Assembly (NCBI GenBank): GCA_023249675.1
Contig: JAHFCE010000027.1
Location: forward strand, 1 to 41,792
From: Elusimicrobiota bacterium
Lineage (GTDB): Bacteria > Elusimicrobiota > Elusimicrobia > UBA1565 > UBA9628
DNA length: 41,792 nt
Direction of reading: 5' to 3'
Part shown: positions 1,406 through 16,743 of the stretch, piece by piece
Layout: every line of letters begins with the position of its first letter
Position numbering within the stretch: position 1 is the first letter of the stretch
Translations under genes and position numbers: made by a program
The notes under the pieces: generated by a model
Databases searched by the model: none
Seen by the model: the letters and a program-made list of their open reading frames with translations, nothing else
Told to the model about the DNA's origin: nothing

Positions 1406-1434
1406 TTGACAGAAACGCATGAGTCCTCTATACT
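1406..1434 (+). promoter_or_regulatory. Sigma70-type promoter of the dcw cluster
   Basis: TTGACA (1406-1411) and TATACT (1429-1434) are separated by exactly 17 bp. This is a perfect -35 and a one-mismatch -10. Initiation is expected near 1441, just before the MraZ boxes, leaving a leader of about 55 bases before mraZ. It is the strongest promoter visible in the window. Confidence 0.85.
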
Positions 1435-1444
1435 CCTGATCCCG

Positions 1445-1492
1445 GTGGGGAAAAGTGGTGAGAAATATCTACAAAGTGAGCAAGGGTGGGGA
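1445..1492 (+). promoter_or_regulatory. MraZ operator: four phased GTGRG boxes
   Basis: GTGGGGA (1445), GTGGTGA (1455), GTGAGCA (1476) and GTGGGGA (1486) start at 10, 21 and 10 bp intervals, so all lie on the same face of the helix. MraZ is known from other bacteria to bind direct repeats of this type with 10-bp phasing upstream of its own gene. The boxes lie between the expected transcription start and the mraZ start codon, which suits repression by roadblock. Confidence 0.8.
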
Positions 1493-1495
1493 TCA

Positions 1496-1945
1496 ATGGC
1501 TCTTCTGATCGGCCGCTACGATTACTCGCTCGATCCCAAGAACCGGCTCGCGGTGCCGCCGAAATATCGCGAGGCCTTGGCCCAGGAGAAGGGGCGGTCG
1601 TTTTATCTGACGAGCGGCATGGAAGGCTGCCTGTATCTCTTCCTGCCAAACCAGTGGGAGAAGCTGCTCGCAGGCGATTTAAAGATGTTCGCGCTTCCGG
1701 ACAAGGAGCAGGAGCGGGCGTTCAAGCGCAAATTCTTCTCCGAGGCGGTCGAAGTCGAGCCGGACGCTCAAGGCCGCATCCTGGTGCCGCAGTATCTCAA
1801 GGAACACGCGGGATTGCGCGGCGGCGTTCTGGTGCAGGGAGCGGGAAACCGCGCCGAAATTTGGGACTCAAAGCGCTGGGCAGCCTACGAGAAGTCGACG
1901 ATTGCTCCAGCGTACAAGAAGATCGCAAAGAGCCTGGAGATATGA
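1496..1945 (+). CDS. mraZ: Transcriptional regulator MraZ
   Basis: This 149-aa protein has two SpoVT-AbrB-type repeats. The first has YDYSLDPKNRLAVP (D13, R17) and the second DAQGRILVP (D90, R94), the paired DxxxR signatures of MraZ. The length matches the family (about 140-150 aa). I chose ATG 1496 because the protein then begins MALLIGRYDY as in the family. The in-frame TTG at 1406 is part of the -35 box and cannot be the start. MraZ is a DNA-binding repressor of the division and cell wall cluster, and the four boxes just upstream show likely autoregulation. Its stop overlaps the rsmH start as ATGA. Confidence 0.95.
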   Translation: MALLIGRYDYSLDPKNRLAVPPKYREALAQEKGRSFYLTSGMEGCLYLFLPNQWEKLLAGDLKMFALPDKEQERAFKRKFFSEAVEVEPDAQGRILVPQYLKEHAGLRGGVLVQGAGNRAEIWDSKRWAAYEKSTIAPAYKKIAKSLEI

Positions 1946-2850
1946 TCTTGGAAGAAGGCCGCTACACTCACGAGCCCGTTCTTGCGGCGGAAACGCTGGA
2001 ACGCCTCGTCACGAACACGGGGGGGTTGTACCTCGACGCCACCCTCGGTCTCGGCGGCCACTCCGAGGCGATTCTTCGCGCGATTTCAGCCCAGGGAAAG
2101 GTGCTTGGTCTCGATGCGGATCCGGAGGCGCTCGCTGAAGCCGGCCACCGGCTCGGAGCCCACAGGGGAAGATTCTCCTCGGTCCGCTCGAACTTCCGTT
2201 TCCTGGGCGGCGTTTTGGAGAAGGAGCGTTTTTTTCCGCTGACGGGCGCGCTCTTCGACCTTGGCGTCTCCTCGCTACAGCTCGACAAACCCTCCCGCGG
2301 CTTCTCGTTCCTGCGCGAGGGACCCCTCGACATGCGCCTGGGACCCGACGCCGCGCTGACCGCGGAACAAATCGTCAACCGCTGGCCGGCGGAACAGATC
2401 GCGATGCTCTTGACGGAATTCGGCGAAGAACCGCAGGCCGACCGCATTGCTCGGGCGATCGTCGCGCGGCGCGCAATCAAGCCGCTGGCCACCACGTTGG
2501 AGCTGGCCGCCTGTGTGGAGTCCGTGGTGCCGCGCACCGGACATCACCCCGCGACGCGCACGTTCCAGGCTCTGCGCATCGCGGTCAATCAGGAGCTCGA
2601 ATCGCTCACGCGCGGCCTTGAAGCGGCGGTGCCGTACCTCAAGAGCGGCGGGCGATTGTGCGTCATTACCTTCCACTCTCTCGAGGACCGCATCGTCAAG
2701 AATATTTTCTCTTCGTTCGTCGCGCAGGGATCGTGCGCTTACCTCGGGAAGGGCGATGAAAAGTCGCCGATCGTCCCGACTGAGGAGGAGATCGCGCGCA
2801 ATCCTCGTTCCCGCAGCGCAAAACTGCGGGTCATCGAAAAAAAGCGATAG
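1942..2850 (+). CDS. rsmH: 16S rRNA (cytosine1402-N4)-methyltransferase RsmH
   Basis: RsmH (MraW) uses S-adenosylmethionine to methylate C1402 of 16S rRNA in the decoding centre. The 302-aa protein begins YTHEPVLAAE as the family does. It shows the SAM motif ATLGLGGHS (GLGGHS at 36-41), the acidic GLDAD at 56-60, DLGVSSLQLD (106-115), RGFSF, PLDMRLG, RTFQALRIAVNQEL and TFHSLEDR (243-250), so all signatures are intact. ATG 1942 overlaps the mraZ stop by four bases. The mraZ-rsmH pair at the head of a dcw cluster is very conserved. Confidence 0.97.
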   Translation: MILEEGRYTHEPVLAAETLERLVTNTGGLYLDATLGLGGHSEAILRAISAQGKVLGLDADPEALAEAGHRLGAHRGRFSSVRSNFRFLGGVLEKERFFPLTGALFDLGVSSLQLDKPSRGFSFLREGPLDMRLGPDAALTAEQIVNRWPAEQIAMLLTEFGEEPQADRIARAIVARRAIKPLATTLELAACVESVVPRTGHHPATRTFQALRIAVNQELESLTRGLEAAVPYLKSGGRLCVITFHSLEDRIVKNIFSSFVAQGSCAYLGKGDEKSPIVPTEEEIARNPRSRSAKLRVIEKKR

Positions 2851-2859
2851 GAGGACACG

Positions 2860-3048
2860 ATGATGAAAAGCATGTCGTTTCTGAGCGGTTCGGCGGCAGC
2901 GATGGCGGCCTTGACGAAGCTGGACACCACGGTGTCCTTCCTTGTCGACCGACGGCAAACTGTCGCGGTCTCGCCGGTGGGCAAGGTCTCCTCCCCCGGA
3001 TATGTGTGGCGGCGCGTTTTCTTGAAGGGCAAGGGAGGGAGTCGATAG
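2860..3048 (+). CDS. Small protein of unknown function (62 aa)
   Basis: I do not recognise this protein. Translation support is strong: AGGAGG lies at 2850-2855, the right distance from ATG 2860, and a second ATG follows directly. The N-terminal third is mildly hydrophobic (SFLSGSAAAMAALTKL), the middle has TVSFLVDRRQTVAVSP, and the C-terminus is basic (WRRVFLKGKGGSR). There is no clear signal peptide or full membrane helix. It lies 9 bases after rsmH and directly before the hairpin array, at a place in the dcw cluster where most bacteria go straight to ftsL. It could be a dcw accessory protein or a regulatory leader-type ORF. Confidence 0.6.
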   Translation: MMKSMSFLSGSAAAMAALTKLDTTVSFLVDRRQTVAVSPVGKVSSPGYVWRRVFLKGKGGSR

Positions 3049-3063
3049 ACCCTCGATAGTTTT

Positions 3064-3211
3064 GGCGGGTGGAGAGGCCAACCACCCGCCGCCGTTAAAG
3101 GCGGCCCCCTCTCGGCGGGGGGACCGCCCGATTTAGGCGGCTCCCCCTCTCGGCGGGGGAAAGCCGCCGACAGATCAGGGCGGGCGTCCCTCTCGGCGGG
3201 GGCGCCCGCCC
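3064..3211 (+). repeat. Array of four strong hairpins, three sharing a TCTCGGC loop
   Basis: Four consecutive inverted repeats fill the gap before ftsL. Hairpin 1 (3064-3090) has a perfect 9-bp stem GGCGGGTGG/CCACCCGCC. Hairpin 2 (3100-3128) has outer stem GGCGG/CCGCC. Hairpin 3 (3136-3168) has GGCGGCT/AGCCGCC. Hairpin 4 (3178-3211) has GGGCGGGCG/CGCCCGCCC. Hairpins 2-4 share an inner C-run/G-run stem around the same loop TCTCGGC. The outer stems differ in sequence and length but stay perfectly paired, which looks like selection for structure. Short AT-richer linkers (such as GCCGTTAAA, CGATTTA) separate them. No long T-run follows, so they are not ordinary terminators. Confidence 0.8.
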
Positions 3212-3232: not shown

Positions 3233-3241
3233 TGGTATAAT
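3233..3241 (+). promoter_or_regulatory. Extended -10 element at the ftsL start
   Basis: TGGTATAAT is a perfect extended -10 (TG-N-TATAAT). It overlaps the first possible ftsL start codon (ATG 3240), and initiation would fall near 3248. Transcripts from it could only use the in-frame ATG at 3252, with almost no leader, while read-through transcripts from mraZ could use ATG 3240. There is no -35 match, as is common for extended -10 promoters. Confidence 0.5.
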
Positions 3242-3590
3242 GGACGCACTCATGGGATTCGATCCACGACGGGTCGCGAGGTTCGCATGTTTGGGCGCCC
3301 TCTTCCTCTTCCTATGCTGGCAGCACGTTCAGGCCACCCGGATCGGCTACCGCGTCGAATCCACCCGGCGCGAGGCCCGCGCCCTGCGTAGCCGCGTCGC
3401 GGATCTTCGCCTCAAAGTCGATGAAACCATGGCCCCTGCGGCTCTCGCTGCGCGCGCCGGCTCCAAACTCGGCATGATCCCCGCTTCGCCGGGCGCTTTG
3501 CGCTCGCTGGCTGAAGAGACCGATGCAACCAGCGGCCTCCTACCCCGCCTGTGGGCGCGTCTGCCGCTCGTTGGGCCCTTACGTAGCTGA
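3240..3590 (+). CDS. ftsL: FtsL-like division protein
   Basis: This small bitopic protein has 116 aa from ATG 3240, or 112 from ATG 3252. A short N-terminal tail (FDPRRVARF) precedes one membrane helix, ACLGALFLFLCWQHVQ, at about residues 17-32. A region rich in Arg/Glu/Leu heptads (YRVESTRREARALRSRVADLRLKVDE) follows and should form a coiled coil. This architecture and the place directly before ftsI fit FtsL, which links FtsB/FtsQ to FtsW/FtsI in the divisome. FtsL sequences diverge fast, so the call rests on size, topology and position. ATG 3240 has AAAGGAA about 10 bases upstream, so I list it as the start. Confidence 0.7.
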   Translation: MDALMGFDPRRVARFACLGALFLFLCWQHVQATRIGYRVESTRREARALRSRVADLRLKVDETMAPAALAARAGSKLGMIPASPGALRSLAEETDATSGLLPRLWARLPLVGPLRS

Positions 3591-16667: not shown

Positions 16668-16743
16668 TGGTGGACGTGACAGGGATTGAACCTGCGACCT
16701 CATCCTTGCGAAGGATGCGCTCTCCCAGCTGAGCTACACGCCC
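16668..16743 (-). tRNA. tRNA-Ala (anticodon CGC), CCA encoded
   Basis: The 76-base minus-strand gene folds as a standard cloverleaf. The acceptor stem is GGGCGTG/CACGTCC, the D arm has TAGCTCAGCTGGGAGAGC, the anticodon stem CATCC/GGATG holds loop TTCGCAA with anticodon CGC, and the T arm has GGTTCAATCC. The third acceptor pair is G-U, the identity element of alanine tRNAs. The discriminator A and 3' CCA are encoded. It reads codon GCG, which is frequent in this GC-rich genome. Confidence 0.97.

What the first reader, a model, noticed from the sequence alone, without database searches (positions are those of the whole stretch)
3064..3211. Four-hairpin array with a conserved TCTCGGC loop inside the dcw cluster
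Four perfect stems stand in a row between the 62-aa gene and ftsL. In three of them the same inner element (C-run, TCTCGGC, G-run) is held by outer stems of different sequence (5, 7 and 9 bp), all fully paired. Conserved loops on covarying stems suggest a structured RNA or a protein-binding RNA array, not a terminator, because no T-run follows. The loop side of hairpin 1 carries GAGAGG (3072-3077), complementary to CCTCTC of the other three, so kissing contacts are possible. It may set the ratio between mraZ-rsmH and the downstream division genes.
Basis: partly seen in the sequence, partly recalled or inferred. Interest (0 to 1): 0.62.

Follow-up and report, generated by a model that had tools for sequence, protein, structure and literature searches.

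The report
Conserved-loop RNA hairpins before ftsL
A row of RNA hairpins that keep the same seven-letter loop (CUCGGCG) while their stems change freely sits at one fixed spot in the cell-division gene cluster of many Elusimicrobiota bacteria, which points to an undescribed regulatory RNA site between rsmH and the division gene ftsL.

Summary
Four hairpins stand at window 3064-3211 between a 62-aa ORF and ftsL; three carry the loop CUCGGCG. In the own genome these three copies lie only here. In relatives (Elusimicrobiota) 1-8 hairpins of the same kind lie at the same place, just after rsmH, across several families of the class, down to genomes whose RsmH is about 45% identical. All 12 stem pairs vary, 11 of them on both sides, while the loop is fixed. 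Counted without a pairing filter, 102 of 162 CTCGGCG in the interval sit in hairpins with at least 9 of 10 pairs, against 1 of 131 in controls. G.U exceeds A.C 75 to 12, so the transcript strand is the one constrained. No Rfam family matches. In the genus a promoter (TGnTATgAT, 10 nt before an in-frame ATG) follows the array, implying leaderless ftsL mRNA. Best reading: a loop-recognised, probably protein-bound cis-acting RNA at the boundary between mraZ-rsmH and the ftsL genes. The partner and the regulatory effect are inferred. Kissing with hairpin 1, 5S rRNA mimicry and rRNA pairing were tested and not supported.

The parts
1496..1945 (+). mraZ, first gene of the dcw cluster (context)
   Evidence: ORF; gene name from the protein sequence and cluster order, not from a family search
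1942..2850 (+). rsmH (mraW), gene whose 3' side carries the element in the relatives (context)
   Evidence: relatives found by protein search with 40-90% identity
2860..3048 (+). 62-aa conserved small ORF (motif GYVWRRVFLKG), found at this locus in three families (context; not required for the hairpins)
   Evidence: no Pfam, NCBIfam or PDB match
3064..3090 (+). hairpin 1: 9-bp stem, loop AGAGGCCAA; orthologs have a compensated stem and mostly a GGATA... loop; not of the CUCGGCG kind
3100..3128 (+). hairpin 2, CUCGGCG loop (3111-3117), one bulged A
3136..3168 (+). hairpin 3, CUCGGCG loop (3149-3155), bulged AA
3178..3211 (+). hairpin 4, CUCGGCG loop, 13-14 bp; its orthologs show the series C-G / U.G / U-A at one pair
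3233..3241 (+). extended -10 promoter element TGGTATAAT, conserved in position in the genus
   Evidence: 10 nt before an in-frame ATG in all 17 genus genomes examined
3252..3590 (+). ftsL with the inferred leaderless start ATG at 3252 (the ORF as listed begins at 3240, inside the -10)
   Evidence: (FtsL_Actino E 8e-10, below the curated cut-off)

Best explanation
A cis-acting RNA element of Elusimicrobiota in the rsmH-ftsL intergenic region: one to eight hairpins whose CUCGGCG heptaloop is read in a sequence-specific way while the stem serves only as a holder. Shown: structure, loop conservation, strand, single locus, age. By binding there it fixes or regulates the 3' boundary of that transcript (readthrough, processing or decay), so that the upstream genes and ftsL-ftsI-mur are expressed at different levels; extra hairpins would strengthen binding. 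In the window's genus ftsL has its own promoter just after the array and is probably leaderless, which fits a boundary role.
For: 48 distinct hairpins: 95% of cells paired, 11 of 12 pairs changed on both sides, covariation score 0.775 against 0.22 in shuffles and at most 0.23 when slid. Filter-free count: 102 of 162 interval CTCGGCG in stems with at least 9 of 10 pairs, 0 of 6 on the reverse strand, 0 of 56 downstream, 1 of 75 elsewhere. GU 75 against AC 12. One locus: own genome; nearly all relative hits lie just 3' of rsmH. In the 84,980-species set, 9 of 13 exact hits are the Elusimicrobia element; the other four lie in open frames without the stem. Deep members with the same loop. Genus alignment with compensatory changes. 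Conserved ftsL promoter.
Against: No transcript data. No binding protein identified. Several lineages of the class (f5, f7, f12, f15, genus g16) lack the element at this site, so it is dispensable. One deep family has the hairpin 4 nt before ftsL with no room for a promoter, so the mechanism may differ between lineages. The 48-hairpin set was chosen for pairing (removes that bias).
Confidence: 0.5

Rival explanations
1. Passive 3'-end structures: GC-rich hairpins that block 3' exonucleases or help termination of the mraZ-rsmH transcript ahead of the ftsL promoter, without a specific reader of the loop.
For: Position between the upstream genes and a conserved ftsL promoter; strong stems; U-run after the hairpin in family f6; copy number varies freely.
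Against: Does not explain why CUCGGCG is kept across families while every stem pair changes, nor why no other place in the own genome uses this loop. No T-run in the window.
Confidence: 0.27
2. A CsrB-like sponge: the array is released or read as an RNA that titrates an RNA-binding protein acting elsewhere.
For: Tandem hairpins with identical loops and variable number, up to 8. One genome has a second clear copy about 170 nt upstream of a pilin gene.
Against: Many genomes have a single hairpin; almost no other sites per genome that such a protein would serve.
Confidence: 0.1
3. The loop pairs with another RNA (kissing hairpin, rRNA or sRNA) instead of binding a protein.
For: Invariant single-stranded heptamer.
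Against: No CGCCGAGU in 16S, 23S or 5S rRNA of a congener and no complement at a conserved mRNA position. GAGAGG of hairpin 1 is not conserved. A partner elsewhere in the genome was not searched for.
Confidence: 0.08
4. DNA-level effect: inverted repeats kept perfect by template-switch correction, or recognised as DNA.
For: Some arrays are nearly homogeneous (for example L048).
Against: G.U is tolerated and A.C is not; fixed locus and orientation across the class; the promoter-side position does not hold in f6.
Confidence: 0.05

Closest known systems
CsrB/RsmZ-type RNAs (CsrA/RsmE-titrating, GGA loops)
   Same: Several hairpins with one conserved loop motif on variable stems.
   Different: Loop is CUCGGCG, not GGA; lies inside the dcw cluster; often a single copy; partner unknown.
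REP/BIME elements
   Same: GC-rich hairpins between genes of an operon, may stabilise upstream mRNA.
   Different: Not dispersed: one locus per genome, fixed over class-level divergence; loop and not stem is conserved.
Intrinsic terminators
   Same: GC-rich hairpin between two genes, in one deep family followed by UUUU.
   Different: No U-run in the window or in most relatives; conserved loop; tandem copies.
Cis-regulatory mRNA hairpins read through their loops by proteins (IRE, Smaug recognition element, phage coat-protein operators; from own knowledge)
   Same: Fixed loop, free but paired stem.
   Different: No protein known here; bacterial cell-division operon.

Membership tests
Any Rfam 15 family | score at or above the gathering cut-off | tested here: not met
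   Window: only a tRNA at 16671. Nine relative loci: none. Best sub-threshold hits are far below cut-off.
REP/BIME or MITE repeat | many dispersed copies in the genome | tested here: not met
   3 copies, all at one locus; rare second sites in G044 and G023 only
Intrinsic terminator | GC hairpin followed directly by a U-run | tested here: not met
   Not in the window array; UUUU does follow the hairpin in G074, G091 and G093
CsrA/RsmE-binding array (CsrB type) | GGA in the apical loops | tested here: not met
   Loops are CUCGGCG. Hairpin 1 orthologs have GGA at the stem-loop junction, not pursued.
CsrA/RsmE-binding array (CsrB type) | binds CsrA and titrates it | not testable with these tools
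   needs binding data
Conserved structured cis-acting RNA | compensatory changes beyond controls, and conservation at one position in relatives | tested here: met
   structure; position
Conserved structured cis-acting RNA | transcribed and changes expression of the adjoining genes | not testable with these tools
   no transcript or reporter data
5S rRNA helix IV mimic | same loop in the same structural context, shared across genomes that have the hairpin | tested here: not met
   The 5S stem is AACGCC/GGCGUU with loop CAACUC, and hairpin-bearing G062, G074, G081 and G093 have unrelated 5S loops

The most novel reading that the evidence does not exclude
An undescribed RNA-binding protein (or other trans factor) of Elusimicrobiota reads the CUCGGCG loop and uses the number of hairpins as a dial for the ratio between the mraZ-rsmH transcript and the ftsL division genes: a loop-coded post-transcriptional control point inside the dcw cluster.
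Probability: 0.3. Interest if true: 0.77.

Novelty: new variant of a known kind. Interest (0 to 1): 0.62.

Why it matters
The dcw cluster is among the most conserved gene clusters of bacteria, and little is known of RNA-level control inside it. A single-locus hairpin with an invariant loop and free stems, kept across families of a class, is a precise and testable lead to a trans factor that controls cell-division gene expression in a mostly uncultured phylum; the natural series of 1-8 copies offers a ready experiment on dosage of binding sites.

Tried and rejected
Rfam at gathering and at permissive thresholds: nothing. Kissing of hairpin 1 with CCTCTC: not conserved. 5S rRNA mimicry: the 8-mer ACTCGGCG occurs in 5S helix IV of a congener, but there GGCG is stem, the loop is CAACUC, and deep hairpin-bearing genomes have other 5S loops. 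Pairing of the loop with rRNA or with a fixed mRNA site: no consistent complement. Dispersed repeat: rejected. Dependence on the small ORF: the two dissociate, since g16 has the ORF without the hairpin, and G035, G062, G070, G074 and G081 have the hairpin without a recognised ORF. Weak off-locus model hits in G004, G005, G018, G019, G226 and the own genome lie in open frames and look like chance. Single-sequence fold of the small ORF: low confidence, pLDDT 65, two helices. Papers: nothing on this element in the held library.

Full report
What is there. Window 3064-3211 holds four hairpins between a 62-aa ORF (2860-3048) and ftsL. Hairpins 2-4 share a loop TCTCGGC held by C- and G-runs, with outer stems of 5, 7 and about 9 bp. 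H2 has a bulged A and H3 a bulged AA, so the stems are not all perfect, but the description is otherwise right. The 191-nt stretch folds at -107 kcal/mol, z = -3.1. The exact core CCCTCTCGGCGGGG is found three times in the 2.6-Mb genome, all here.

Conservation. A DNA search with the array hits most same-genus genomes, and the hits lie at this place. RsmH-anchored extraction from 85 genomes shows the interval between rsmH and ftsL carrying 1-8 hairpins with loop core YUCGGC(G) in most GC-rich members. The stems differ completely (for example TGGCGGGCGCC, TTGACGGACGGG, TGGTGGGGATC, GGTGGGTACC). In the window's family the hairpins stand head to tail at about 38-nt spacing; in two sister families they are fewer and further apart; in deep families there is usually one. 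In G074, G091 and G093 the hairpin starts at the rsmH stop codon and ends 4 nt before the ftsL ATG. The RsmH proteins of these deep members are about 45-48% identical to that of the window.

Statistics. On 48 distinct hairpins aligned by the loop, 95.1% of cells pair, 11 of 12 pairs have changes on both sides, and the covariation score is 0.775 (shuffles 0.217; slid partners at most 0.230). Those hairpins were chosen for pairing, so the test was repeated with no filter: of 162 CTCGGCG on the + strand of the intervals, 102 have at least 9 of 10 flanking pairs; on the - strand 0 of 6; in DNA further downstream 0 of 56; in the rest of the window and four foreign loci 1 of 75. Among 83 hairpins G.U pairs outnumber A.C 75 to 12, as expected if the + strand RNA, and not the DNA or its complement, is under selection; some of the G.U lie next to the loop, where sequence conservation may add to them, but positions 3-10 alone still give 26 to 5. 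Within the genus, the pair next to CCC in hairpin 4 is C-G, U.G or U-A, and hairpin 1 shows wholesale compensated stems (ATCGGG/CCCGAT, ATTGG/CCAAT, GAGGGTTG/TAACCCTC) with no CUCGGCG loop.

One locus. A covariance model finds only the three known copies in the own genome above noise. In 97 relatives and in 341 genomes of the phylum nearly all good hits lie just 3' of rsmH. Real exceptions are few: G044 has a long-stem copy with loop ACTCGGCG about 170 nt upstream of a type IV pilin gene, and G023 has a short copy at the start of another gene. No Rfam family matches.

Neighbourhood. In the genus the array is followed by TATGAT or TATAAT, usually with TG one base before it, and an in-frame ATG stands 10 nt after the hexamer in all 17 genomes examined; in five other genera of the family the distance is 8-14 nt. 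This reads as an extended -10 promoter giving a nearly leaderless ftsL mRNA; it is a sequence inference, not a mapped start. The small ORF is a conserved family of 41-64 aa (motif Y-x-W...F), found in 48 genomes of three families at this locus, with no match in Pfam, NCBIfam or PDB (a few weak motif hits in f12 aside). Hairpin and small ORF dissociate in both directions, so neither needs the other.

How it may work. A fixed loop on free stems, in RNA orientation, kept at one operon position, is the signature of a hairpin that is read through its loop by a trans factor; a protein is the likeliest reader, since no rRNA or conserved mRNA complement was found and hairpin 1 does not offer one. The position between the mraZ-rsmH unit and a promoter-led ftsL unit suggests a boundary function: limiting readthrough, or setting the 3' end and stability of the upstream mRNA. 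Shown here: structure, strand, loop conservation, locus, age. Inferred: transcription, the binding partner, the direction of the effect. Passive 3'-end protection or weak termination is the main rival; it leaves the loop unexplained.

A tempting lead was tested and dropped: the 8-mer ACTCGGCG occurs in the 5S rRNA of the genus, but the covariation of 5S shows GGCG to be stem there, and hairpin-bearing deep families have unrelated 5S loops.

Verdict. A genuine, apparently undescribed structured RNA element, a new variant of the known kind of loop-recognised cis-regulatory hairpins. Confidence that it is a selected RNA structure is about 0.93; confidence in the proposed mechanism as a whole is about 0.5.

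Noticed in passing
window 2860-3048: Conserved small protein family (41-64 aa, motif GYVWRRVFLKG) between rsmH and ftsL in about 48 genomes of three families; no Pfam, NCBIfam or PDB match. Similar short ORFs with Y-x-W may exist in G094 and G095 (L082, L083).
   Followed up: partly
window 3233-3255: Extended -10 TGnTATAAT ending 10 nt before an in-frame ATG of ftsL in all 17 genus genomes examined: probable leaderless ftsL mRNA.
   Followed up: yes
window 1406-1495: Upstream of mraZ: TTGACA (1406) - 17 nt - TATACT (1429), followed by repeated GTGGG-like boxes (GGTGGGG, GTGGTG, GGTGGGG), the usual form of an MraZ-autoregulated promoter (from own knowledge).
   Followed up: no
L153 / L176 (G044:C35:20264-20297): A second, off-locus copy of the hairpin with a very long stem and loop ACTCGGCG, between a divergent epimerase gene and a type IV pilin gene.
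   Followed up: partly
L069, L072, L074, L156, L094, L148 (families f2 and f9): A second GC-rich hairpin of the form GGGAGGGG-loop-CCCCTCCC, or with the two sides exchanged, between the CUCGGCG hairpin and ftsL.
   Followed up: no
G003, G006, G009, G016, G054 and others: A second RsmH-like protein about 40-42% identical to the dcw RsmH, encoded elsewhere in many of these genomes.
   Followed up: no
L032-L039, L059 (hairpin 1 orthologs): Hairpin 1 is a separate stem-loop of part of the genus: stem fully compensated, loop beginning GGATA in most; GGA at the junction recalls CsrA sites but was not tested.
   Followed up: partly
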